From Dickeya aquatica (GTDB lineage: Bacteria; Pseudomonadota; Gammaproteobacteria; Enterobacterales; Enterobacteriaceae): DNA of 64,000 nt. The position numbers were made by a program, and so were the translations under genes. The stretch lies in the NCBI RefSeq assembly GCF_900095885.1, contig NZ_LT615367.1, positions 4,030,001 through 4,094,000 on the forward strand, in the 5' to 3' direction. Under the pieces are notes generated by a model that did not search any database, was not told the DNA's origin, and worked only from the letters and a program-made list of their open reading frames with translations. Positions 9,416 through 64,000 of the stretch are shown here, piece after piece; position 1 is the stretch's first letter; each line of letters opens with the position of its first letter.

Positions 9416-10111
<696 letters not shown>

Positions 10112-10116
10112 CTACC

Positions 10117-10479
<363 letters not shown>

Positions 10480-11013
10480 TTACTTCTTCTTAGCCTCTTT
10501 GGTACGCACGACTTCATCGGCGTAACGAACACCCTTGCCTTTGTAAGGCTCAGGACTACGGTAGGCGCGCAGATCAGCTGCCACCTGACCGATCAGCTGT
10601 TTATCAGCGCCTTTCAGCACGATTTCAGTCTGAGACGGACATTCAGCAGTAATACCTGCAGGCAGTTCGTGATCGATCGGGTGAGAGAAGCCCAAGGCCA
10701 GATTCACCACATTACCTTTCACGGCTGCACGATAACCAACACCTACCAGCTGCAGCTTTTTGGTGAAGCCTTCGGTAACACCGATAACCATGCTGTTCAG
10801 CAGAGCGCGGGTAGTACCGGCCTGAGCCCAGCCATCAGCAAAACCTTCGCGCGGAGCGAAAGTCAGCACGTTATCAGCCTGTTTAACTTCTACAGCAGCG
10901 TTGACTTTGCGGGTCAGCTCGCCGTTTTTACCCTTGACCGAAATATCCTGACCGTTGAGTTTTACCTCTACGCCGGCAGGAATGACGACGGGTGCTTTTG
11001 CAACACGAGACAT
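10480..11013 (-). CDS. rplF: 50S ribosomal protein L6
   Basis: A 177-residue L6 ([20 protein letters not shown]) with two repeated L6 folds and the C-terminal signature [20 protein letters not shown]. It lies at the base of the L7/L12 stalk near the factor-binding centre. It follows rpsH by 13 bases. Confidence 0.99.
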
Positions 11014-11026
11014 TCTTTCCTCCCGA

Positions 11027-11425
<399 letters not shown>

Positions 11426-11452
11426 TTACTCCCGTGATTCAATTGGTGACAA

Positions 11453-13034
<1,582 letters not shown>

Positions 13035-51334: not shown

Positions 51335-52207
51335 ATGCACAACTTTAACAAACCCTTTCGCCTTGGGCTGTATGAGAAGGCGCTGCCCGCCACGCTGACG
51401 TGGGAAGAGAAGATCCTGGCGGCCAAAGAGCTGGGCTTTGATTTTATTGAAATGTCGGTGGACGAATCTGACGACAAATTGCAGCGTCTGGCCTGGAGCG
51501 ATGCGGAAATCTATCAACTGCGCCATGTGTGCGAACAACACAACTTCCCGTTGCAATCCCTGTGTCTGAGCGCACACCGCCGTTTTCCGTTTGGCTCACA
51601 CGACCCGGCAATACGCCAGAAAGCCCATGACATCATGGCGCAGGCTATCAATCTGGCTTACAAACTGGGCATCCGCTGCATTCAGTTGGCGGGTTATGAT
51701 GTCTATTACGAAACCCCGTCTGCCGAAACGCATCAGCACTTTATCGAAGGGATGAAAGCCGCCACCCGCATGGCAGAGCGCGCAGGCATCATGCTGGGCG
51801 TCGAAATCATGGATACCCCCTACCTCAACTCACTGAGTAAATTTGAGGTGCTGAAAAAAGCCATTCCCTCGCCTTACTTCATGGCCTACCCGGACGTGGG
51901 CAATATCACTGGCTGGAACTACGACACCTGTACCGAGCTAAAACTCAGTTGCGATCACATCGTGCAGATCCACCTCAAAGACACCCATAAAGTCTCGGCC
52001 AGCAGTCCGGGGCAATTCCGCGATTTGGTGATTGGTGAAGGCGAGGTTGATTTTAGCGCCATCTTCCAGACGCTGGCCGATATCGGTTACAACGGCCCGC
52101 TGGTGCTGGAGATGTGGGCCAATGATGCGCAGTGGGCGCAAAACCTGACGCTGGCCCGCTCGCGCCTGGCCGAGATAGGGCGTCAAACTGGGCTGATACT
52201 GGTCTAA
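51335..52207 (+). CDS. ulaE: L-xylulose-5-phosphate 3-epimerase UlaE
   Basis: A 290-residue TIM-barrel sugar epimerase (AP endonuclease family 2 fold) converting L-xylulose 5-phosphate to L-ribulose 5-phosphate. Motifs are [41 protein letters not shown] and HLKDTHKV. A perfect AGGAGG precedes the ATG at 51335. It lies 13 bases after the HAD gene. Confidence 0.95.
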
Positions 52208-52304
52208 TCCGGTGTCATCAAAAGAATCTCAGGAACGGCTGTCATTCACGCGCATGCGGGATATAATCTTAAAAAAATCAAATTCAATCATTATCAGGCA
52301 CGAT

Positions 52305-53078
52305 ATGACAGAAGCTCAGCGCCACAGCGCCATCCTGGAATTGCTCAATCAAAAACGCCACCTGTCGGTGACGGGCATCATACAAGCCTTTGATATTTCG
52401 CCCGCCACCGCCCGCCGTGATATCAATAAACTGAACGATTCCGGTAAGTTGCGTAAGGTGCGCAATGGCGCAGAAGCACTCGCCCAAACCAAAACTCACT
52501 GGTCGCCGCTCAACAGCCATGAGAATTTTAATCACAGTGAGTTTTCTAATCACGGAGAGAAAATGCGCATCGCCCAGGCAGCGGCGGCGCTCATCAAACC
52601 CGGTGAGAGTGCGGTTATCAACTGTGGTTCGACCGCGTTTGTACTCGGTCAGGAGATTTGCGGGCAGGATGTACAGGTGATAACCAACTATTTCCCGCTG
52701 GCGAACTACCTGATTGAGCATGATCATGACGGCGTGGTGATTATCGGTGGTCAATACAACAAATCACAGTCCATCACGCTGGCACCACAGGATGAAATCT
52801 CCTCGCTGTACGCCGGGCACTGGATGTTTACCAGCGGCAAAGGCATTACTGCCGATGGTTTATACAAAATGGACATGCTCACGGCGATGGCCGAGCAAAA
52901 AATGCTCAATCATATCGGGCAGTTGGTAGTGCTGGCGGATAGTTCGAAGGTAGGACAACGTGCCGGAATGCTGTTTTGCCCCTCAGACAGGATAGATATT
53001 CTCATCACTGGCAACGATGCTGATGCGCAAGTGGTTGCCCGGCTACGTGATAAAGGCGTCCATGTAATATTGGTGTGA
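52305..53078 (+). CDS. ulaR: DeoR-family repressor of L-ascorbate genes, UlaR
   Basis: A 257-residue DeoR regulator. The N-terminal HTH reads [39 protein letters not shown], followed by a sugar-phosphate-sensing domain ([16 protein letters not shown]). In E. coli UlaR represses the ula operons and responds to L-ascorbate 6-phosphate. The ATG at 52305 matches the E. coli N-terminus MTEAQRH; it is preceded by a CAATCATT word, suggesting autoregulation. It closes the plus-strand operon. Confidence 0.93.
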
Positions 53079-53085
53079 CTGACGA

Positions 53086-53116
53086 GTGCCTGACCCGGTG
53101 ATACCGCGTCAGGCAC
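53086..53116. terminator. Hairpin between convergent ulaR and argD
   Basis: GTGCCTGAC pairs with GTCAGGCAC across 13 bases that include CGGT/ACCG, giving a long stem in the 53-base gap between the two genes. T runs are short, so efficiency is uncertain. Confidence 0.6.
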
Positions 53117-53131
53117 GAATAACAATAAGGC

Positions 53132-54382
<1,251 letters not shown>

Positions 54383-54386
54383 CTAC

Positions 54387-54420
54387 CAGTGAAAATATAG
54401 TCAATAAATATGCATAAAAA
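54387..54420 (-). promoter_or_regulatory. Probable pair of ARG boxes upstream of argD
   Basis: On the minus strand TATGCATATTTATTGA and TTGACTATATTTTCACT lie side by side about 35-65 bases before the argD start. Both approach the ArgR consensus TGAATwwwwATTCA, and tandem boxes at this spacing are normal for ArgR hexamer binding. The matches are imperfect. Confidence 0.5.
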
Positions 54421-54475
54421 ATCAAAAATAGGCAATCCCTAATCTGCCTGTGTGCGCGTGGTGCGGGTTATCCGG

Positions 54476-55051
54476 CTATAAATCAAGGAAATTTCTCAAT
54501 AGCTGGTGCCCTTGCTGGCTGAGAATACTTTCCGGGTGAAACTGCACCCCTTCAAGCGGCAAGGTGCGATGACGCACCCCCATGATCTCATCCATCGCGC
54601 CATCGCGCGCCGTCCAGGCGGTCACCTCAAAGCAATCGGGCAACGAGGCGTGTTCCAGAATCAGCGAGTGATAGCGCGTCACCGTCAGCGGATTCGCCAG
54701 CCCGCGAAACACCCCCTGCGCGGTATGACGCACCGGTGAGGTTTTGCCATGCATCACCTCGCGCGCCCGCACCACGCGTGCGCCAAAAACCTGACCCAGC
54801 GCCTGATGACCCAGGCACACGCCAAGAATCGGTAATTTACCGGCAAAGTGGTGGATGGCGGCCAGCGAGATACCGGCGTCGTCCGGCGTGCAGGGGCCAG
54901 GAGAAATCACCAGTTGCTGTGGGGCTAACTGTTCGATATCGGCCAGCGTCAGCGTGTCGTTACGCCTGACCTGCACCTGAGCGCCCAGCTCACAAAAATA
55001 CTGATAGAGGTTGTAGGTAAAGGAGTCGTAGTTATCGATAAGCAGCAGCAT
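54476..55051 (-). CDS. pabA: Aminodeoxychorismate synthase glutaminase subunit PabA
   Basis: A 191-residue class I glutamine amidotransferase that supplies ammonia to PabB for p-aminobenzoate and folate. The nucleophile is Cys79 in [10 protein letters not shown], with the His-Glu of FHPESIL near the end. It lies upstream of argD. The fic gene that flanks pabA in E. coli is missing here. Confidence 0.96.
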
Positions 55052-55256: not shown

Positions 55257-55541
55257 CTAACCCAGTGACAGCTTAAGCTGCATCCCGCAGGCCGCGGCAT
55301 ATCGTTGTAAGGTTGAGATACTGGCACTGGAAACATTTCTCTCAAGGCGGCTTACCGCAGGTTGGCTTACCCCCATACGAGCGGCGATCTCTGTACTTGT
55401 CAGACCTGACCTGGACTTCATTTCGATCAGAACAGCGCGAAGCGCTTCTTCTTGAGTTTCGTCCTCATACGCTTTTTTAACTTCAGGATGAGAAAGCGCT
55501 TTCGCTTTAACATCAGAAAATCGGATACCTTTAACTGCCAT
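55257..55541 (-). CDS. XRE-type antitoxin of a HigBA-like module
   Basis: A 94-residue protein with a helix-turn-helix (LTSTEIAARMGVSQPAVSRL) in its C-terminal half. It follows the toxin gene and overlaps it by 11 bases, the toxin-first order of higBA systems. It should bind the toxin and repress the operon. The module lies next to pabA, where E. coli has fic. Confidence 0.88.
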   Translation of the reverse strand: MAVKGIRFSDVKAKALSHPEVKKAYEDETQEEALRAVLIEMKSRSGLTSTEIAARMGVSQPAVSRLERNVSSASISTLQRYAAACGMQLKLSLG

Positions 55542-55851
55542 CTTGCAATTCCTCCCATCTTGACGTTGCCAGCGCTATTTCAGCTTTCGGGGTCTTAGGG
55601 GTTTTCTTGATGAATGTCCTTAAAATATAGATCTTACGTCCTTTGGCGTAAGCAAAAAACGTTCTGCTGATGTCTTTTCTACCAACCCGTAGCTCAAACA
55701 ATCCATCTTCAATGATGTCCGTGTCGGGATATCTTAGCCCGGGCCCTCTAGCTTCAAGCTTTTCCAGCCCTTTAAGCGCCTTTGCCTGCATAACAGGTTC
55801 GAGGTCATAAATTTCGCTTGCAGCTTCGGGGTGAAAAATCAATTCATACAT
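55531..55851 (-). CDS. RelE/HigB-like toxin (phage Gp49-like family)
   Basis: A 106-residue protein with FHPEAASEIYDLEPVMQ, GLFELRVGRKDISRTFFAYA and YILRTFIKKTPKTPKAEI, the pattern of Gp49/HigB-type ribosome-dependent mRNA interferases. It starts after AAGGGGACTGAC and precedes its antitoxin. Which mRNAs it cuts cannot be told. Confidence 0.87.
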   Translation of the reverse strand: MYELIFHPEAASEIYDLEPVMQAKALKGLEKLEARGPGLRYPDTDIIEDGLFELRVGRKDISRTFFAYAKGRKIYILRTFIKKTPKTPKAEIALATSRWEELQDGS

Positions 55852-56375: not shown

Positions 56376-56738
56376 ATGCGTGTATTCAAAACCAAATGGT
56401 TTACTAAGGCGGCTAAATCCCACGCTATCAAGGATAGTGAGTTATGTCAGGCCATTGAGGCGGTGACTCAGGGGAAAAAGGCGGATGATCTCGGCGGCGG
56501 CGTTTACAAGAAACGCCTTAACCAAAACCGCGATCGCGCCATCATACTGGCGAAAGGCGGGGAACATTGGTTTTACACGTTCCTGTATGCCAAGCAGGAT
56601 ATGGCGAACATTGATGATCGTGAACTGGCCGGGTTCCGCGAACTGGCGAAGCACTATGCCAACCTTGCCGATGAAAAGATTACGGCACTGATTAAGCGTA
56701 AAGAACTGGTGGAGATTTGCCATGACTGCAAAAAGTAA
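56376..56738 (+). CDS. RelE-like type II toxin (PF06296-like)
   Basis: A 120-residue protein with VFKTKWFTKAAKSHAIKDSE, KKADDLGGGVYKKRLNQNRD and ANIDDRELAGFRELAKHYAN, the pattern of the RelE-like HigB group often found with HigA2-type antitoxins. It overlaps the antitoxin gene by 17 bases. It lies 500 bases from a second, unrelated module on the other strand. Confidence 0.85.
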   Translation: MRVFKTKWFTKAAKSHAIKDSELCQAIEAVTQGKKADDLGGGVYKKRLNQNRDRAIILAKGGEHWFYTFLYAKQDMANIDDRELAGFRELAKHYANLADEKITALIKRKELVEICHDCKK

Positions 56739-57045
56739 ATTCAAAAGCCCGGCATTTGAGGCCATTCACAGCGCCGCGTCTGGCTTATTCAGCGTTGATG
56801 CCATCCCACAGGAAACCATGCGCAATTTTGACAAAGCGTGCCTTAACAGTGTCGAGTTTCTTCAGCCACTGGAAATTAAAGCGCTGCGTGAGAAGTTAAA
56901 CGTCAGCCAGCCAGTTTTCGCCCGCTACCTGAACACCAGTGTTTCAACAGTGCAGAAATGGGAAAGCGGCGCAAAACGCCCTAGCGGGTTGTCGCTGAAA
57001 CTGCTTACCGTGGTGCAAAAGCATGGGTTGAAGGTGTTGGTTTGA
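56722..57045 (+). CDS. HigA-type antitoxin with XRE helix-turn-helix
   Basis: A 107-residue protein. The C-terminal HTH reads LREKLNVSQPVFARYLNTSV-STVQKWESGAKRPSG, close to HigA/NadS antitoxins. An N-terminal part of about 50 residues should bind the toxin encoded just upstream. The genes are probably one operon controlled by this protein. Confidence 0.87.
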   Translation: MTAKSKFKSPAFEAIHSAASGLFSVDAIPQETMRNFDKACLNSVEFLQPLEIKALREKLNVSQPVFARYLNTSVSTVQKWESGAKRPSGLSLKLLTVVQKHGLKVLV

Positions 57046-57203
57046 GTTATCGGCTGGTTATTTGGGGAGATAGATTGACAGCGGACATTACTAGTATCCT
57101 CTAATGTTAAAATATGGTGAGCAGGTCAGGTAAAAGCAGGGTCGCATCGCGTGACGCGTGGCTGAGTGTGAACGCCAGCGCACAGCGGTTCAAAACCGGG
57201 CTC

Positions 57204-58418
57204 TCACCCGGTTTCATCACGCAGTACCGCAGGGTTAAATTGCTTGCGAAATTCAATCGGCGTCAGCCCGGTATACCGCTTAAACATCTTCTCGAAGTGG
57301 CTCAGGTCGCCATAACCGCAATCGAGATAAAGATTGGTTATCCGGCTCATTGGGTGGCATTCGAGCCGCTGGCAGGCATAAAAAATACGCACCTGATTCA
57401 AAATCTGCTTAAACGACAGCCTCAGGCTATTTTTCAGCAAATAAGAGAGATGCGACGGGCTGATATGGGCATTTTCCGCCAGCTCAATCAGCGTCACCTC
57501 ACGCTGAAAATGTTCGCCCAAATACATCAGCGCCTTGATAACAGACGGATGAAACTGCTGGAGCGCCTGATTATCTCGATGCAAAATCGCGTCACACAGT
57601 GCCCGGTTGATAAGCCGCCGCCCATCACCGGCCGTGGATGCCGTCATAATATGCGGCAGAATGCGCCCGGCCTGGCGCAAATCAATTTCCGTCTCATCAC
57701 TGAGCATCAATAACCGCGCAATACTGTGCCATAGCTGGCGCACATTGCCCGGCCAGTCATACTGCTGCAATCGCTTTAGCACATCAGGGTGTAACGTCTG
57801 ACGGGCTGACTGCCGGTAAGCCAGACTCGCGCTGTGAATCAGTTCATTGATATCCTGCGTGCGCCCTTTTAATGCCGGGATGGATAACATTTCCACGCCC
57901 AATTCTGACACCAGATCCACTGCCGATTGCGCCAGTACAGCCTGGCTATAGGGCTGCTGTGCATGCAGGCAAAACAGCCATTGCAGCCGCTCATGCCTGT
58001 CACGCATCTGCCGCACATACGGCAAAATGTCCTGACGCCGGGACTCGGTAAGCGTATCAAAATCGAGGAAACAGAGTGCCTGTGCCTGATGGGAGCACAG
58101 ATCATCGGCAATCGCCGCCAATTGAGTCCCCAGATCGTTATCCGGCGATAATTCAAGATATGTGTGTTGTAAGGCCAGCAGTCTGGCGCGAATATAGGCC
58201 ATCACTTCCGATAAATCCGCCCCCGGCTCACCGGATAACAGCAGCGGCGTTCCGGCAGATAAAAGAAGATCTATTTTCCCGCGCAACGCTGAAGGCAAAA
58301 AAATAAATTCGGGGATATGATGCACACCGGCATAACCACGGTGTTCATAGCCATTGAAAGGGATATTCCCGGCGGGAATACTGTGCTGTGTATCAGATAG
58401 TCTGTTTTCTGTTTTCAC
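57204..58418 (-). CDS. Chimeric regulator: degenerate NtrC-type AAA+ module plus AraC-type DNA-binding domain
   Basis: A 404-residue protein starting at GTG after AAGGA. Residues about 38-245 align in order with sigma-54 activator AAA+ domains: LLLSGEPGADLS in place of Walker A (no GK[ST]), ALCFLDFD in place of Walker B, PALKGRTQDI and YDWPGNVRQLWHSI. The GAFTGA loop is missing. Residues about 296-391 form an AraC HTH pair (LAENAHISPSHLSYLLKNSL; GYGDLSHFEKMFKRYTGLTP). It should bind DNA without acting as a sigma-54 ATPase. It lies downstream of the peptide locus and may control it. Confidence 0.8.
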   Translation of the reverse strand: MKTENRLSDTQHSIPAGNIPFNGYEHRGYAGVHHIPEFIFLPSALRGKIDLLLSAGTPLLLSGEPGADLSEVMAYIRARLLALQHTYLELSPDNDLGTQLAAIADDLCSHQAQALCFLDFDTLTESRRQDILPYVRQMRDRHERLQWLFCLHAQQPYSQAVLAQSAVDLVSELGVEMLSIPALKGRTQDINELIHSASLAYRQSARQTLHPDVLKRLQQYDWPGNVRQLWHSIARLLMLSDETEIDLRQAGRILPHIMTASTAGDGRRLINRALCDAILHRDNQALQQFHPSVIKALMYLGEHFQREVTLIELAENAHISPSHLSYLLKNSLRLSFKQILNQVRIFYACQRLECHPMSRITNLYLDCGYGDLSHFEKMFKRYTGLTPIEFRKQFNPAVLRDETG

Positions 58419-58750
58419 GGGAAAATCCTTTATTCAACACTTGCACGTTATAATTTACAGATAAATAGCTTTCCTTATTGCATGGTTCGCCATTTCTCTT
58501 ATAGTGAATATTAATAAAATTTATTCGATATAAAAAAAGCAACCAGGAAAACTACTCTCCTTTTATACAACAGCCATCATGAACAGATAAAAACATTGAG
58601 CCGGTGCAACTAAAATAATGCATAACACATCAAATAAAATATAAAGTCATTCATGATATAAAAAATAAAAATATAAAAGTAAGTCCCTTTACTGTTTATT
58701 CACCCATGCCTTGGGATGAAAATAAATGTATTCCCTGACACTGTTAACAC
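58419..58750. other. A+T-rich intergenic stretch upstream of the AAA-AraC regulator
   Basis: About 330 bases, visibly poorer in G+C than the flanking genes, with no convincing gene on either strand. It should contain the regulator's promoter. No strong -35/-10 pair was recognised. Confidence 0.5.
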
Positions 58751-58918
58751 TTAACCATCATGACTTTCTTGAGTATGAGGGCTCATGCTAACTGTCAGTT
58801 TTCGTCCGGTGACGACATCAGCCGATGTAGCTATCAGCATGAAAGGGCTGATTAAACAGGGATAAAAACCATTTAGGCTATGTGCTGTCTTATTATGTGA
58901 TATTTGCCATACTGTCAT
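58751..58918 (-). CDS. Putative 55-residue peptide gene
   Basis: The frame begins with ATG five bases after GGAGG, an almost ideal start, and reads MTVWQISHNKTAHSLNGFYP, then CLISPFMLIATSADVVTGRK and ends LTVSMSPHTQESHDG. I recognise no family. It lies between the XRE gene and the AAA-AraC regulator on the same strand. It could be a second peptide precursor, an immunity peptide or a chance frame; the ribosome-binding site is the only positive evidence. Confidence 0.45.
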   Translation of the reverse strand: MTVWQISHNKTAHSLNGFYPCLISPFMLIATSADVVTGRKLTVSMSPHTQESHDG

Positions 58919-58999
58919 AAATTCCTCCATTTTTATTATTAAGATAAAACGCATCCACTTCCCAAAAAACAAATAGACTATTAATCTCCCGCACTATTT

Positions 59000-59325
59000 T
59001 TAGTTTTTATTCGCATCATGAGGAATTAATGATTTATAAGAACTTGAAAAAACAAAATTAACATAATCATTGTAGTTAAAATTATCATAAATACGTTCAC
59101 GGACTGGCATGATCAGGTTATCCACGGCAACATCAAAAAATTTAGCCAGCTTATGGAGTGTTTGTCTTGATACGGGCTTACCCAGTTCAGCTCTTTTTAT
59201 TGTTGCAATTGATATATAGCACCTTGACTCAAGACTTCGCTCTGACAGCTCCTCCTGACTCAATTTTTTTTTAGCCTGAGATTTTTAATCACAACTGTGT
59301 TCACTAAAACTCCGTTATTAGACAT
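59000..59325 (-). CDS. XRE-family regulator interrupted by an A9 tract (possible frameshift or slippage)
   Basis: ATG at 59325 follows AGAGGA. The frame reads MSNNGVLVNTVVIKNLRLKK and then stops at TGA right after nine A (59264-59272). One extra A, or a -1 shift on A AAA AAA, joins it to the next frame and gives a 108-residue protein with a complete HTH: IKNLRLKKKLSQEELSERS, then ISIATIKRAELGKPVSRQTL. The join is exact to the domain, so the gene is either expressed by slippage, recently broken, or misread in sequencing. Confidence 0.7.
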
Positions 59326-59338
59326 AATTTCCTCTTTA

Positions 59339-59569
59339 CAATGAGAATTAATACACAAATTTCATGGCATCGCGCTCGTTAACGTCTCTAAACCGGGAAA
59401 GCGCCGGAGAGTAACGCCATAAACCACAAAAGATGCATATCAATTTTTTATGATATTATTTGGCTAAACGTGATATCCCCTGATGTCAATAACGTGATAT
59501 AAGTCTGGTTTCATTGGCCATTTATTGCGGGCCATAAGAATAATTTTTTTATTAGAATGTGAAAAAGTG
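59339..59569. promoter_or_regulatory. Upstream region of the XRE gene with direct repeats AACGTGATAT
   Basis: The perfect ten-base word AACGTGATAT occurs at 59467-59476 and 59491-59500, 24 bases apart, about 150 bases before the XRE start. No gene is seen here. The repeats may be a binding site of the XRE or AAA-AraC protein. Confidence 0.4.
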
Positions 59570-59594
59570 CATGGCCCAGGGCCATGCACTTTGA
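59566..59594 (-). terminator. Strong terminator directly after the 50-codon peptide gene
   Basis: A near-perfect palindrome of 29 bases (AAAGTGCATGGCCC with GGGCCATGCACTTT) begins five bases after the peptide stop codon and is followed on the minus strand by T residues. It would end the peptide message and protect its 3' end. Confidence 0.85.
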
Positions 59595-59598
59595 CGGA

Positions 59599-59751
59599 TT
59601 AGCCGTTCAGTACACCGGCCAGCGCGCCCTGACCTGCTTTTTTCAGCACGCTCAGTACATCACCCCAGAAAGCCGGGTTAACACCAGCAGCTTTAGCTTC
59701 AGCGATACGGTTAGCGCGGTTTACGTTCTGAGACTGAGTTGGAAGTTTCAT
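59599..59751 (-). CDS. Putative ribosomally synthesised peptide precursor, 50 residues
   Basis: ATG follows AAGGAG with a good spacing, and the stop is followed at once by a strong terminator. The product begins MKLPTQSQNVNRANRIAEAK and ends NPAFWGDVLSVLKKAG then QGALAGVLNG. The first ~24 residues are polar and leader-like; the last ~26 could form an amphipathic helix. There is no Cys and one Ser, so thiazole or lanthionine formation is unlikely in the C-terminal part. Codons (CGT, CTG, AAC, GGT) suggest high expression. The next gene upstream is the PatA/PatG-like protease. Confidence 0.75.
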   Translation of the reverse strand: MKLPTQSQNVNRANRIAEAKAAGVNPAFWGDVLSVLKKAGQGALAGVLNG

Positions 59752-59970
59752 GTGTATTTCTCCTTGAGTCTATTTACAGTTTATTTGGGGATTTCCCCAG
59801 GTTAATGCCCCCGAATGGTGGCAAATTTAAAACTTTCGATTCTTTTAAAACTGGTACTGGTTTTAAATCATGGATTGCAAAAGAGATCTTTCCATGCCGT
59901 ACATGCGGCGTTTAAATATGAAAAACCAAAGCCGACGGTAAGGTAATATCGTTTGCAATAACCAATGACA
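59752..59970 (-). promoter_or_regulatory. Leader and probable promoter of the peptide gene
   Basis: The 219 bases between protease stop and peptide start contain an eight-bp inverted repeat TTTAAAAC / GTTTTAAA (59844-59867) around the spacer TGGTACTG, which also forms a direct repeat ACTGGTACTGGT. A small hairpin GGGG-AAAT-CCCC lies nearer the start. No clear sigma-70 promoter is assigned. The inverted repeat is a candidate operator. Confidence 0.5.
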
Positions 59971-61938
59971 TTAATAAGCATGCCAGTTGCGCAATGTGCC
60001 AATGGTAATAGGCATTACATCACTGACATCAATGGTGTAGCGATATAGTTTTCGGGCGGCGGTCAGGCGCTCTTTAGGGTTAAAGAACTCCAGCACCACG
60101 TCCCAGCAATCTGATTCAGGGCGGCTAACCGGGCTGCGCTCTGCACTGATTTTGTTGAGGAATAACCCCTCAGCGAATGCATCATCAAAGATTTCTTTCA
60201 TTTGATACGCATTGGTCGCGGCATAGTTAATCGCACGTTCGTTCGATTCATAGCCCCGGTTACGCAGTTCGTAATAAATACGATTAATAAAGTTAACCAG
60301 CTCCTTGGATTTCGGCGTACCCACGGCACTTTCGCCCATGAGCATTTTGGAAATATCCTGAGACTCCCAGTTAAACATGCCACGTAATACCGGGCTGATG
60401 GTCGGGATGACCTGGCCGTTAAACAGCCGGGTTTCACCGCTGATGGTGCCAGCAATAGAAACACGCTCGACACCTTTGGTTTCCTGTTCATACAGGAATT
60501 CCACTAGTCGTGCATATTCCAGCACAGCGAATTGCGCATCCGGTTTAATGGCATAAACAGGAATACCATCTATTTTTAACGTCCAGATTAATGCGTTGGA
60601 TTGCTCGGCGTTATCACCGGTATTTAAATGCTCAGCCATATGGACGGGATCAAACGGATAACCACTTTTATTACCCATGACCTGAGTGAAATAATCCAGG
60701 CGGGCTTCGGTACCAAAGTCATAACCAATCTGGCCGATAGCAAAGATCTTTTCCTGATCGCGAATGGTGCGCGCATCCAGCGAAGACGATTGCGGCACAA
60801 TTCGCCGGGCGGGAGCATGGACATAATGATTCGCAGCCGGATCGCTGATCCTCGGCAGTGACAGCCCGCTGTCTCGTGCAGATACGGCCACCGCAGTGCC
60901 TGCGTCCACGCCAGCACTCACCGGTGCCGCAAACGTCTCACCCGCCGGAATAATATCCTGGTGAGTGTCGATGATGGAGGGAACCAGCAGCTCTGTCGCC
61001 ACAGGCTCAATATTATTTTCTTCAGTTGACATGGTCATGATCCTTTTTGATGGTTGGTGATAAAATTCCTGTGCTATGCGCCGGAATAATTTCTGAATAT
61101 TTAATCGGTATATCACTGACTCCCGATTCGCTGTCGCTGACAACATTAACGGGGTGGCGGTATTAAACAGCACGTCCCGTATCATTTCTGGTGCACGACG
61201 ATCGTTTGCTACATTCATCGCCCCCATTATCAGTGCCGATATGGCTGACACCACAGGGGCAGAAAAACTGCTACCGGATACAACAGACAGATCATAATTC
61301 GGCGTAGCAACAGGGATTGAGACACCTGATGCCAGCAACATTTTCCTTCTTAATTTCAACCCGTAGTTATTAAATGAGGCGGGTAATCCCTCTTTATCAC
61401 AGGCTCCGACAGCCAAAACAAAATCCATCGATGCCGGTAACGATTCACTATTGCGCCCTTCATTACCAACAGCGGCAACAATTAATATTCCTTGTTGTTC
61501 GCAATCCTCGACGGCTTTACGCAGTTCATCCGTACCATGACCATTCGATGACAAGGATGCACCACTGATATTAATAATATGGCAGCCATGTAATCTGGCA
61601 TCGCGGATCGCTTTTGCCATAGCGCGTTCTGAACACCCTTGTATATTTCCTCTTTCATCCTCATGAAATACAGGAATGCTGACAATATTCACATCTGGTG
61701 CAATACCTACACCCTGGCCACCAATAATGCTGCATACAGCCGTACCGTGTGAGGTACTTTTATTCTCACAGCCAGAAAGGCATTCAATGTTTAAATGATT
61801 CAAAACGGGATGATGACCATCAATAGCACCATCAATAATAGCGACCTTTATTCCTTCTCCATTTATCCCTAATTGCTGTAATCCTGCAAGCGGATTATCA
61901 GCTAACACAGCATGATGGTTTGATGGGTTCATCATCAT
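59971..61938 (-). CDS. Subtilisin-like PatA/PatG-family peptide maturation protease
   Basis: A 655-residue protein without signal peptide. The S8 domain (about 15-290) has a complete triad: Asp36 in VAIIDGAIDG, His64 in STSHGTAVCS, Asn159 in AAVGNEG and Ser224 in SGSSFSAPVVSA. A linker follows, then a C-terminal domain (about 385-650) with IFAIGQIGYDFGTEARLDYF, the hallmark I associate with PatA/PatG cyanobactin proteases. It should cut, and perhaps cyclise, a precursor peptide; the 50-residue gene follows 219 bases downstream. ATG at 61938 follows AGGAAAGAG; a TTG at 61980 would be longer. Confidence 0.85.
   Translation of the reverse strand: MMMNPSNHHAVLADNPLAGLQQLGINGEGIKVAIIDGAIDGHHPVLNHLNIECLSGCENKSTSHGTAVCSIIGGQGVGIAPDVNIVSIPVFHEDERGNIQGCSERAMAKAIRDARLHGCHIINISGASLSSNGHGTDELRKAVEDCEQQGILIVAAVGNEGRNSESLPASMDFVLAVGACDKEGLPASFNNYGLKLRRKMLLASGVSIPVATPNYDLSVVSGSSFSAPVVSAISALIMGAMNVANDRRAPEMIRDVLFNTATPLMLSATANRESVIYRLNIQKLFRRIAQEFYHQPSKRIMTMSTEENNIEPVATELLVPSIIDTHQDIIPAGETFAAPVSAGVDAGTAVAVSARDSGLSLPRISDPAANHYVHAPARRIVPQSSSLDARTIRDQEKIFAIGQIGYDFGTEARLDYFTQVMGNKSGYPFDPVHMAEHLNTGDNAEQSNALIWTLKIDGIPVYAIKPDAQFAVLEYARLVEFLYEQETKGVERVSIAGTISGETRLFNGQVIPTISPVLRGMFNWESQDISKMLMGESAVGTPKSKELVNFINRIYYELRNRGYESNERAINYAATNAYQMKEIFDDAFAEGLFLNKISAERSPVSRPESDCWDVVLEFFNPKERLTAARKLYRYTIDVSDVMPITIGTLRNWHAY
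61030..61045 (-). promoter_or_regulatory. Internal ribosome-binding site and ATG at the domain boundary of the protease
   Basis: AAGGA, eight bases and an in-frame ATG (61030-61032) lie exactly between the subtilisin domain and the PatG-like domain. Initiation here would give a separate 353-residue C-terminal protein starting MSTEENNIEPV. Whether it is used is unknown. Confidence 0.5.
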
Positions 61939-62041
61939 TCTCTTTCCTGAATATGGAATTAAAAATCCCCGGTGTTTCAATTAGCATTAACTGCCTGAAA
62001 TCACGATTTCCGATTTTCATCACGAATCGCATCTCATTCAT
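61898..62041 (-). CDS. Possible 47-residue peptide ORF overlapping the protease start
   Basis: A minus-strand frame from ATG 62041 reads MNEMRFVMKIGNRDFRQLML, IETPGIFNSIFRKENDDEPI and ends KPSCCVS. It overlaps the beginning of the protease gene by 41 bases in another frame. The layout of a short polar peptide ending in two cysteines beside a maturation protease is suggestive, but the ribosome-binding site is weak and the DNA is A+T-rich, so a chance frame is likely enough. Confidence 0.25.
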   Translation of the reverse strand: MNEMRFVMKIGNRDFRQLMLIETPGIFNSIFRKENDDEPIKPSCCVS

Positions 62042-62416
62042 GAAACATTATTTCTTTCACCATAGAGAAACCAAATTTTCCACACAAAAATTAACACTAA
62101 AAATAAATAAATTATCCGCCGCTATTTCATGATGATTCGAATAAATCATACCGTCAGACGTCCTCATTCATGGCACACATGGGTAAAGGTTATTTATATT
62201 TTGTTGATGAACTTATCCTAACGCCACTTTAAAAATATTTTGGTATCACTTTAGTATCATTTATATGAAAAACATAAAATTCAATGACTTAATTTAAATA
62301 TCCGTGCCAGACACTGTATGTTTACTGAATATATGCCGTACATTTCTCACATCGCTGACAACGGCGTAACCGGGTTCCTGACGTTCACGTCCCCCTCGGC
62401 TACGCCTGTCGCCGCG
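61939..62416. promoter_or_regulatory. A+T-rich region upstream of the protease, with phased direct repeats
   Basis: About 480 bases between the protease and the GH19 gene. It contains the direct repeats TTTGGTATCA (62239-62248) and TTTAGTATCA (62250-62259), 11 bases apart and so on one face of the helix, as AraC-type proteins often require. Apart from the weak 47-codon frame no gene is seen. Confidence 0.45.
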
Positions 62417-63043
62417 TTAACCAAACGCGCGTTTCGCTTTTGCCAGATAATTTTTGCGATCAACCAGGCCGTTGAGCCCCCCGTTAATCCGGCGGGTGAT
62501 GGTATTGATATCGTCCCGATCGGCAAGCTCGCTCAAGCCATTTTTTTTCCAAAACCAGAGGGCGGCAGCAACCGATACATCGGGGTTTTGGCTAATCAGA
62601 TCCGGGTTGGTCAGTAAATCCTGACCAATTGCACTGCCGCAGGCATGGTAGTTGTCACGCCCGGTTAACTGAATCAACCCGCGGCCGCGGTATTTCCAGC
62701 CATCGCCGCTTTCGGTTGCACCATTCCCCATGCGGTTGGCGTAGACAATATTGGCTATCGATTCCGGCTTGCGCTCATACTGGGCGGCCATGTCATCGGT
62801 CGTGAAATAGCGCCCGAATATTGAGCGCAGCCCCTTGGCGCTGTAATTCAAATTCTCGACCCGGGCACGAAGCTCGCTACTTTCATGGGCTATCTGGGCG
62901 ATAAAATGCGCAAAGCGCAATACCGTATCAAGACCGGCCGCCAGACACTCTTTTTGCAATGCAGGCTGAAACTGCGCCAGATCATCGGCACTGGCTGCGG
63001 TCATCACTTTTTTTAATTTTTCCTGACTGATTTCAAGGCTCAT
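62417..63043 (-). CDS. GH19 family endolysin/chitinase-like lysozyme
   Basis: A 208-residue protein typical in size for phage GH19 endolysins. It shows the catalytic Glu54 in FIAQIAHESSELRA, then YKYRGRGLIQLTGRDNY-like sequence (GRGLIQLTGRDNYHACGSAI) and INGGLNGLVDRKNYLAKAKR. It should cleave peptidoglycan glycan strands. There is no signal peptide and no holin nearby, and no other phage gene is seen. The start at 63043 follows AAGGAG; longer frames are not needed. It lies upstream of the protease on the same strand. Confidence 0.88.
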   Translation of the reverse strand: MSLEISQEKLKKVMTAASADDLAQFQPALQKECLAAGLDTVLRFAHFIAQIAHESSELRARVENLNYSAKGLRSIFGRYFTTDDMAAQYERKPESIANIVYANRMGNGATESGDGWKYRGRGLIQLTGRDNYHACGSAIGQDLLTNPDLISQNPDVSVAAALWFWKKNGLSELADRDDINTITRRINGGLNGLVDRKNYLAKAKRAFG

Positions 63044-63222
63044 GGGTTTTCTCCTTATGATGTCGAATAGCGCCAGTTTGCAGAGGAAAGGGGCGCGCGC
63101 TCTTGGGGAGATATCGGCAAAAGGCTGGCAGATACGCAGCAAAATCGGGCAAATAGCTGATGTGTCGTGTGCTGCCACGCAGCCGGTGTGTATCGCCGCT
63201 CCGGCTGCGTGGCGAAACGTCA

Positions 63223-64000
63223 TTACTGGAAGGGTGTCTGGTGTTCAACCAGCTCCCACACCAGATAGCAAAGGAACGCACAGCCCACGACTACCAGCAC
63301 CAGCGTCATCCCTTCCGACCCCATACGGTCCATCATAAAACCGATGCCAATCAGCCCGGCAATGCCGCCCAGCGAGTCCATCATGGTGTAGCTCATGTTG
63401 GCAGACATCTGTTGACGCGGGTGAAACCGATCGCCAAGCAGCGATAACCCAATGCTGTAAATGCCACCCATGCAGCCGCCCCAGACATAGAGTAAACACA
63501 GCGTTGCGCCATAATCGGAATAGACCGCCAAAGCCAGAAACACCGCACAGACGACCGAGCAGAAAATACAACACACCACGATCCACTGCCGGTTCACCCA
63601 ATCGGATAGCAGGCTGACGACCATACCAAGCGTCACACTGCCGAGCATGAACATGGTCATCAGCAACGATGCGCGCGCTTCGCCAAGCCCGTCGCTGATG
63701 CCATAGAGCATCAAAAAATTGGGCAAGCCATAAAAGCTGATGCCCCCGACCAGGGCGGAAACCAAAATGGCGCGGGCATGGCGGCAGACAAAGCGAAAAC
63801 GCACCAATGCCACCTCGTCAGTTGGCGGGCTGATGCCCGCCACCCACACCAGCAGCAGCGCGCTCAGGCTCAGTAACGCCGTCAGGAAAAAACGGTGTGG
63901 CATCGACAAGGCCAGCATCTGCAACATCACCGGCCCCAGCGCAACGCCGAGTGATAAAGCCGCCGAAAATAGCCCCATCACCAGCCCACGACGCCGTAAC
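63223..64000 (-). CDS. MFS transporter, C-terminal part (partial at window edge)
   Basis: The frame is open to the end of the window and continues beyond it. It starts in LRRRGLVMGLFSAALSLGVA, which looks like the motif around TM4-TM5 of a major facilitator, and then shows about eight hydrophobic segments ending WELVEHQTPFQ. Substrate unknown. It is about 180 bases upstream of the GH19 gene; whether it is an exporter serving the peptide locus cannot be decided. Confidence 0.85.
   Translation of the reverse strand, partial: LRRRGLVMGLFSAALSLGVALGPVMLQMLALSMPHRFFLTALLSLSALLLVWVAGISPPTDEVALVRFRFVCRHARAILVSALVGGISFYGLPNFLMLYGISDGLGEARASLLMTMFMLGSVTLGMVVSLLSDWVNRQWIVVCCIFCSVVCAVFLALAVYSDYGATLCLLYVWGGCMGGIYSIGLSLLGDRFHPRQQMSANMSYTMMDSLGGIAGLIGIGFMMDRMGSEGMTLVLVVVGCAFLCYLVWELVEHQTPFQ

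What the first reader, a model, noticed from the sequence alone, without database searches (positions are those of the whole stretch)
58751..61938. Candidate peptide-maturation (RiPP-like) system with a PatA/PatG-type protease outside cyanobacteria
Seen: a 655-residue subtilisin with a C-terminal PatG-like domain, followed on the same strand by a 50-codon peptide gene with strong ribosome-binding site and terminator, an XRE regulator, another small ORF and an unusual AAA-AraC regulator. Known: PatA/PatG proteases remove leaders and cyclise cyanobactin cores. Inferred: this is a minimal peptide system that lacks YcaO/cyclodehydratase, prenyltransferase and lanthionine enzymes, so the product may be a simple proteolytic or head-to-tail cyclised peptide.
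Basis: partly seen in the sequence, partly recalled or inferred. Interest (0 to 1): 0.88.

Follow-up and report, generated by a model that had tools for sequence, protein, structure and literature searches.

The report
Minimal protease-released helical peptide system
This soft-rot bacterium carries a tiny gene set in which a cutting enzyme related to those of cyanobacterial cyclic peptides most likely snips a short helical peptide out of a 50-residue precursor, a scheme that recurs in distant bacteria.

Summary
Window 59971-61938 (-) encodes an intact 655-aa PatA/PatG-family subtilase (TIGR03895, 470 bits; cut-off 421). The 50-aa gene behind it is real: 30 homologues, change mostly at third codon positions, and it stands directly behind the protease in 13 of 13 loci read of this protease clade (Dickeya, Yersinia, Enterobacter, Vibrio, Agarivorans).

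The interpretation changes. The enzyme looks more like PatA (leader cutter) than the PatG macrocyclase, and no AYDG-like follower exists, so cyclisation is unlikely. The peptide splits into a leader (LPxQxxxVxR...GVNPA, near the published PatA site G(L/V)E(A/P)S) and a Cys-free, predicted helical core FWG...VLNG. The same leader and site stand behind PatA-type proteases in cyanobacteria, other proteobacteria and Streptomyces plasmids, with other cores; one Streptomyces cluster repeats one leader with changing cores, marking the boundary. Best reading: cleavage frees a linear 23-residue, perhaps membrane-active peptide. Cleavage, export and activity are inferred.

Product-less 'cyanobactin' clusters are already reported in Dickeya; this is a new variant.

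The parts
59971..61938 (-). PatA/PatG-family S8 protease, 655 aa (S8 61147-61860; PatG_D 60445-60750; PatG_C 59983-60303); D36, H64, N159 and S224 invariant in 57 rows
59599..59751 (-). 50-aa precursor peptide gene
59671..59751 (-). proposed leader, residues 1-27, with LPTQSQNVNR motif and GVNPA site
   Evidence: published PatA site
59602..59670 (-). proposed linear core, residues 28-50, FWGDVLSVLKKAGQGALAGVLNG, calculated monoisotopic mass 2299.269 if unmodified
   Evidence: cleavage inferred
59760..59765 (-). ribosome-binding site AAGGAG, 8 bases before the ATG
59561..59592 (-). hairpin terminator after the peptide gene
   Evidence: similar hairpins behind the peptide in L033 and L034 in the same call
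59260..59325 (-). first part of the XRE regulator, zero frame, 21 codons then stop
59264..59272 (-). A9 tract where the regulator changes frame (-1)
   Evidence: A9 in 10 of 11 loci, A8 in L075
59000..59263 (-). second part of the XRE regulator, -1 frame
57204..58418 (-). AAA-lid/AraC regulator next to the system in Dickeya; link to the system inferred from position

Best explanation
A two-gene peptide maturation unit (protease plus precursor), joined by an XRE regulator in the Dickeya, Yersinia and Enterobacter loci and by an AAA-AraC regulator in Dickeya. The precursor is recognised through its leader motif LPxQxxxVxR; the PatA-type subtilase cuts after GVNPA (the place of G(L/V)E(A/P)S), freeing a linear 22-23-residue, Cys-free, amphipathic helical peptide that keeps its encoded C-terminus. 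The peptide is most likely membrane-active against other bacteria. Shown: genes, families, co-occurrence, purifying selection, shared leader and site. Inferred: recognition, cleavage, linearity, export, activity.
For: Protease family and intact triad. Peptide directly behind it in 13 of 13 loci of this protease clade and in 8 of 9 Dickeya species, the ninth having only a protease remnant. Profile comparison of the gamma peptides with seven Cys-rich peptides found behind PatA-type proteases of cyanobacteria and two other proteobacteria aligns residues 1-28 only (94%, P 1.2e-7); with seven Streptomyces peptides residues 1-46 (79%, P 1.6e-5). A leader-plus-site pattern, written after seeing these peptides, is met behind the protease in 20 of 21 loci with a standalone protease (the exception, L071, has a divergent version seen by eye) and by 0 of 2209 starts in 49 loci of other subtilases. 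Four tandem Streptomyces precursors (L100) share the leader up to GVEAN and carry three different cores. Foldseek ranks PagA/PatA 1-2 and 4-6, PatG macrocyclase 20. Helical moment of six related cores exceeds 98.6-99.7% of shuffles.
Against: No cleavage, mass or activity data. No exporter or immunity gene is conserved next to it; generic ABC ATPase families occur 3-8 kb off in L033, L034, L035 and L087. Core charge is only +1 to +2, low for a membrane-active peptide. The core is conserved, unlike many bacteriocins, though one Dickeya pair has core dN/dS about 0.6. P0002 hits no known precursor family; the tie to true cyanobactin leaders rests on weak hits of two related peptides (E 0.044 and 0.09), and the canonical cluster L072 gave no hit to the pattern. 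GVNPA differs from the published consensus at two of five positions. The peptide's AlphaFold model is low-confidence (pLDDT 64). In the fold comparison PatG ties with two PatA entries.
Confidence: 0.64

Rival explanations
1. The product is a conserved signal: the freed peptide is sensed, directly or after import, by the adjacent XRE (or AAA-AraC) regulator.
For: Core under purifying selection in four of five pairs; the XRE gene accompanies protease and peptide in Dickeya, Yersinia and Enterobacter; between the window and L082, L078 and L081 XRE is 59-62% and AraC 63-67% identical, protease 85-86% and peptide 82%, so the regulators diverge faster.
Against: Vibrio and Agarivorans loci have protease and peptide; the split XRE pattern was not found there. 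The core is nearly the same across genera, unusual for a private signal.
Confidence: 0.17
2. A self-acting (defence or altruistic) module: the peptide stays inside and permeabilises the producer's own membrane when the protease or its regulator is triggered.
For: No exporter or immunity gene conserved next to it; patchy distribution (3 of 394 genomes of the order); regulator with a slippage tract; related units with other cores lie on cyanobacterial and Streptomyces plasmids.
Against: PADLOC gives only generic subtilase, HTH and AAA hits; no close relative of this peptide in the phage, plasmid or viral-contig collections; fixed chromosomal place in Dickeya with a remnant in G004.
Confidence: 0.13
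3. Head-to-tail cyclised peptide made by a PatG-like macrocyclase.
Against: Sequence nearer PagA/PatA; Foldseek rank 20 for PatG against 1-6 for PagA/PatA and the PatG DUF; no helix between D36 and H64; no AYDG-like follower, peptides end GVLS, GVMS, VLNG and similar.
Confidence: 0.08
4. The 50-aa protein is an inhibitor or chaperone of the protease, not its substrate.
For: Conservation over the whole length; subtilases often have small partners (general knowledge).
Against: Leader shared with peptides of unrelated cores, several per protease in Streptomyces and G1080; Vibrio penaeicida has two copies.
Confidence: 0.07
5. For the regulator: the A9 tract is a phase-variable site or a sign of decay rather than programmed frameshifting or transcriptional slippage.
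For: L075 has A8, so tract length does vary.
Against: A9 with a zero-frame stop right behind it in 10 of 11 loci of three genera, while 194 of 452 upstream and 300 of 689 downstream amino-acid-conserving codon pairs differ (L075 left out). Decay would hardly keep both parts readable across genera.
Confidence: 0.25

Closest known systems
Cyanobactins (patellamide PatA/PatG, prenylagaramide PagA)
   Same: Protease family and domains; PatA-like catalytic domain; similar cut-site position; leader motif by weak hits of related peptides to TIGR04446 and TIGR03678
   Different: One protease, no macrocyclase-type insertion seen, no AYDG follower, no heterocyclase in the nine ORFs scanned, conserved Cys-free helical core, linear product expected
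Unnamed PatA-type protease plus short peptides (Gloeocapsa, Nostoc, Acaryochloris, Streptomyces plasmids, G128, G1080; found here)
   Same: Gene order, leader motif, GVxPS- or GVEAx-like site
   Different: Cores Cys-rich (cyanobacteria, G128, G1080) or variable (Streptomyces). In the tree these proteases form one side (100/100), the gamma-type ones with Roseibium the other (100/100); the gamma type without Roseibium 94/92
antiSMASH 'cyanobactin' clusters of Dickeya and Photobacterium in print (PMC6329079, PMC8386352, PMC10319131, PMC8864124, PMC11231085, PMC7356628, PMC9456166; passages read)
   Same: Same species; the Photobacterium tag range L4174_20290-20360 contains the peptide's tag L4174_020325, if the tags differ only by a padded zero
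   Different: The passages read name no precursor, leader, cut site or product
Streptomyces scabies SCAB_66631 next to four short peptides (PMC7369419, passage read)
   Same: PatG-type C-terminal domain beside short peptides
   Different: The passage reports similarity only to the PatG domain of unknown function and describes no leader or core

Membership tests
PatA/PatG maturation proteases (TIGR03895) | Whole-protein score above the curated cut-off | tested here: met
   470.3 bits against 421.05
PatA/PatG maturation proteases (TIGR03895) | Intact S8 triad | tested here: met
   D36, H64, S224 invariant in 57 rows
Cyanobactins | Precursor with N-terminal PatA-type cut site G(L/V)E(A/P)S | tested here: inconclusive
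   GVNPA, GINPA or NVNPA in 31 of 31 aligned peptides: same place, but N for E and A for S; consensus from PMC10885120
Cyanobactins | C-terminal AYDG-type site | tested here: not met
   No such follower
Cyanobactins | PatG-type macrocyclase domain | tested here: inconclusive
Cyanobactins | YcaO heterocyclase in the cluster | tested here: not met
   Nine ORFs of 56376-63981 scanned; only YcaO match of the genome at G000:C1:2102952
Cyanobactins | Prenyltransferase and PatB/PatC small proteins | not tested
   None among the nine ORFs scanned; other small ORFs and the rest of the genome not searched
Class II bacteriocins/microcins | Double-glycine leader | tested here: not met
   No Gly-Gly in the window's peptide
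Class II bacteriocins/microcins | Dedicated C39 exporter | not tested
   No exporter conserved next to the peptide; C39 family not searched
RiPPs in the strict sense | Post-translational modification beyond proteolysis | not testable with these tools
   No modifying enzyme among the nine ORFs scanned; chemistry needs mass spectrometry
Genes with programmed -1 frameshift or transcriptional slippage | Conserved slippery tract joining two parts of one domain | tested here: met
   A9 in 10 of 11 loci; HTH_3 33.1 bits on -1 reading against 21.2 for the second part alone in the window
Genes with programmed -1 frameshift or transcriptional slippage | Shifted product actually made | not testable with these tools
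   Needs RNA or protein data

The most novel reading that the evidence does not exclude
A bacterial peptide class spread over at least three phyla in which one PatA-type protease and one shared leader release unmodified peptides of any core type, from Cys-rich to short helices reminiscent of amphibian skin peptides (recalled likeness, not tested); in Dickeya, Yersinia and Enterobacter it stands beside a regulator that exists in full only when the ribosome or RNA polymerase slips on an A9 tract, making it a possible stochastic switch.
Probability: 0.3. Interest if true: 0.85.

Novelty: new variant of a known kind. Interest (0 to 1): 0.7.

Why it matters
It gives orphan 'cyanobactin' calls in Dickeya and relatives a precursor, a leader, a cut site and an expected product mass, so they become testable at once. 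It suggests a portable leader/protease pair for making linear helical peptides, and it adds a conserved frameshift tract inside a DNA-binding domain.

Tried and rejected
Close relatives of the peptide in phages, plasmids, IMG/VR viral contigs and E. coli genomes: no match (by nucleotide letters only). Class-wide search with the peptide alignment found, besides the own genome, three matches at E 3.5e-4 to 8.1e-4 covering 26 of 49 model positions, two with a stop inside; taken as chance. The search of XRE part 2 in the protein collection found only itself, so nothing is known here of that gene in Photorhabdus, Cedecea, Pantoea or Salmonella, whose proteases were listed but whose loci were not read. 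PADLOC and PHROGs gave nothing specific for the protease, peptide or XRE (the protease was not). The D-H spacing of a true PatG could not be read: L072's second protein does not align at the triad. P0025, P0028 and P0030 differ at the C-terminus; kept in the counts. For the profile comparisons seven of eight Cys-rich peptides (L096's third left out) and seven of 12 Streptomyces peptides were used (one identical copy left out, four found only later). The neighbour comparison used ORFs of 40 aa or more, E 1e-8 and 60% length, and its printout was cut in the middle. Corrections to my notes: says A9 in 11 of 12, the count is 10 of 11; one search says 18 of 19 for the pattern, a recount gives 20 of 21.

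Papers: passages only, of PMC6329079, PMC8386352, PMC10319131, PMC8864124, PMC11231085, PMC7356628 (all six papers) and of PMC9456166, PMC4603692, PMC10885120, PMC10783134, PMC13039773, PMC8776678, PMC7369419, PMC10145562. That the precursor is not in print rests, one open-access library; subscription papers and preprints were not seen. One search on slippage listed three papers, none opened.
Full report
WHAT IS THERE. The window lies in a one-contig 4.50-Mb genome, a Dickeya by its homologues' names. On the minus strand stand a GH19 endolysin-like gene (62417-63223), the 655-aa protease (59971-61938), the 50-aa peptide gene (59599-59751), a split XRE gene (59325-59000) and an AAA-AraC regulator (57204-58418). 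The protease carries S8, PatG_D and PatG_C above their cut-offs and passes TIGR03895. D36, H64, N159 and S224 are invariant in 57 aligned relatives.

THE PEPTIDE IS A REAL GENE. Thirty homologues were found among 30 candidates, named ones from Dickeya, Pantoea ananatis, Agarivorans, Thalassotalea, Photobacterium, Endozoicomonas and Vibrio. In ten of ten pairwise DNA comparisons more than half of the changes fall at third codon positions; synonymous codon changes outnumber the others in nine of ten (17 against 18 in the tenth, window and L036a). In five pairs dN over the whole peptide is 0.10-0.22 and dS 0.52-2.34; for the core alone dN/dS is about 0.05-0.27 in four pairs and about 0.6 in one Dickeya pair. 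AAGGAG stands 8 bases before the ATG, and a strong hairpin with a T run follows the gene.

IT TRAVELS WITH THE PROTEASE. In the genus 8 of 9 species have the peptide, the same eight that have a full-length protease; G004 keeps only a protease C-terminal remnant next to pabA, so an ancestor had the system. All six loci of the genome-contig scan (two repeat G002 and G003) have the peptide right behind, two copies in Vibrio penaeicida; Agarivorans (L087) too. The gap from protease stop to peptide start is 66-219 bases in six loci. The system is patchy: 3 of 394 sampled genomes of the order; proteases over the TIGR03895 cut-off in 2 of 369 of the class and 2 of 398 of the phylum, own genome included each time. 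Between genera the neighbours in common are protease, peptide and, in Dickeya, Yersinia and Enterobacter, XRE, apart from shadow frames over these genes and generic ABC ATPases 3-8 kb away. In the two Yersinia loci the three genes stand between genes that I read, without a family search, as a galactose-operon side and gpmA.

LEADER AND CORE. Other lineages showed the logic. Directly behind PatA/PatG proteases of Gloeocapsa (L073), Nostoc (L097), Acaryochloris (L071), the gamma-proteobacterial G128 (L074) and the proteobacterial G1080 (L096) stand eight short peptides: six begin M-x-[LI]-P-x-Q, seven reach a Pro-Ser site such as GVEPS, and all continue with a Cys-containing stretch. On three Streptomyces plasmids (L098-L100) three to five such peptides follow one protease; some cores hold two Cys, others none. 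In L100 four copies share 46 leader residues up to GVEAN (three residues differ in one copy), then carry GFLDEWGPKIARGIGGLFG (twice), GLINLLAKGIGSLFG or FLPLLGALGSLLF. Profile comparison of the gamma peptides with seven of the Cys-rich ones aligns residues 1-28 only (94%, P 1.2e-7), so homology stops at the site; with seven Streptomyces peptides it runs over residues 1-46 (79%, P 1.6e-5). A leader-plus-site pattern, written after these were seen, is met behind the protease in 20 of 21 loci with a standalone protease, by one of 1198 starts in the 64-kb window (the peptide itself), and by 0 of 2209 starts in 49 loci of other subtilases. L072 (canonical cyanobactin cluster), L077 (remnant) and L101 (protease cut by the record end) gave no hit. 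A review (PMC10885120, passages) states that PatA enzymes cut after G(L/V)E(A/P)S and PatG before AYDG. GVNPA is the same place with two substitutions; nothing like AYDG follows.

WHICH KIND OF PROTEASE. By sequence the catalytic domain scores 130 bits with PagA and 72 with the PatG macrocyclase. The AlphaFold model (mean pLDDT 79.8; 296-387 under 50) has only a short strand between D36 and H64. Foldseek ranks PagA and PatA entries 1-2 and 4-6 (E 2.7e-24 to 3.5e-21) and the first PatG macrocyclase chain 20th (4.0e-17). By Z, PagA (37.9) and one PatA entry (36.6) lead, but PatG (34.0) ties with two other PatA entries (33.9, 33.7). D36 and H64 are 28 positions apart, against 34-35 in three cyanobacterial-type proteases; the larger insertion of PatG is recalled from the literature, not measured. 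The C-terminal half matches the solved PatG domain of unknown function 4uvq. In the tree gamma-type proteases with Roseibium form one side, cyanobacterial and actinobacterial ones with G128 and G1080 the other (100/100).

THE PRODUCT. A cut after A27 would leave FWGDVLSVLKKAGQGALAGVLNG. Six such cores have helical moments of 0.35-0.44, reached by 0.3-1.4% of shuffles, and charge +1 to +2; they are related, so this is not six independent results. The peptide model has helices 12-21 and 26-49 with a break before the site, at low confidence. A membrane-active role is likely rather than shown; without exporter and immunity genes a signal or self-acting role stays open.

THE REGULATOR WITH A SPLIT READING FRAME. 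Part 1 begins ATGTCT at 59325 and ends at a stop right behind an A9 tract; the rest of the helix-turn-helix continues in the -1 frame. Ten of 11 loci (seven of eight Dickeya, two Yersinia, one Enterobacter) have A9, one Dickeya (L075) A8; in L076 the contig ends within part 2. With L075 left out, amino-acid-conserving codon pairs differ in 194 of 452 upstream and 300 of 689 downstream comparisons. Read across the tract, the window's protein rises from 21.2 to 33.1 bits for HTH_3 (cut-off 23). Programmed -1 frameshifting on A AAA AAA or transcriptional slippage would explain this; phase variation remains possible.

IN PRINT. 'Cyanobactin' clusters without product are reported for Dickeya and for Photobacterium CCB-ST2H9. 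PMC8864124 tells of an island with a RelE/ParE toxin inserted in the cluster of two D. zeae strains; in this window two toxin-antitoxin-like pairs likewise lie between the AraC gene and pabA, and tblastn found neither in six other Dickeya loci (in L076 the contig ends before the place). No passage read names the precursor or its site.

VERDICT. A real and conserved peptide maturation unit that should work like PatA cleavage, but not a cyanobactin system by membership: the AYDG site and the heterocyclase were tested and not met. New variant of a known kind.

Noticed in passing
window 62417-63223 (-): A GH19 endolysin-like gene (phrog_181 endolysin) stands directly upstream of the protease in 8 Dickeya loci (family F7), not in the other-genus loci; it might help release a peptide that lacks an exporter.
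   Followed up: partly
window 55257-55851 (-) and 56376-57045 (+): Two toxin-antitoxin-like pairs (Gp49/HTH and RelE/HTH) between the AAA-AraC gene and pabA, not found by tblastn in six other Dickeya loci, one of which (L076) ends before the place.
   Followed up: partly
window 58500-59999: G+C falls to 0.34-0.39 around the XRE and peptide genes against 0.52-0.59 at 52000-54999.
   Followed up: no
L098, L099, L100 (Streptomyces plasmids): PatG-domain subtilases followed by three to five short precursors; the first overlaps the protease stop by 4 bases in L098 and L100.
   Followed up: partly
L096 (G1080) and L074 (G128): Proteobacterial PatA-type proteases over the TIGR03895 cut-off with three and two Cys-containing short peptides behind them.
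   Followed up: partly
P0028 and P0030: Peptide entries from D. ananatis and D. solani have altered C-termini that look like frame shifts; whether real or sequencing errors was not checked.
   Followed up: no
L077 (G004): A Dickeya species in which tblastn found no peptide, XRE or AraC gene and only a protease remnant beside pabA.
   Followed up: yes
L087 (Agarivorans), 10088-11527 in the turned locus: A DUF6765 gene directly behind the peptide gene.
   Followed up: no
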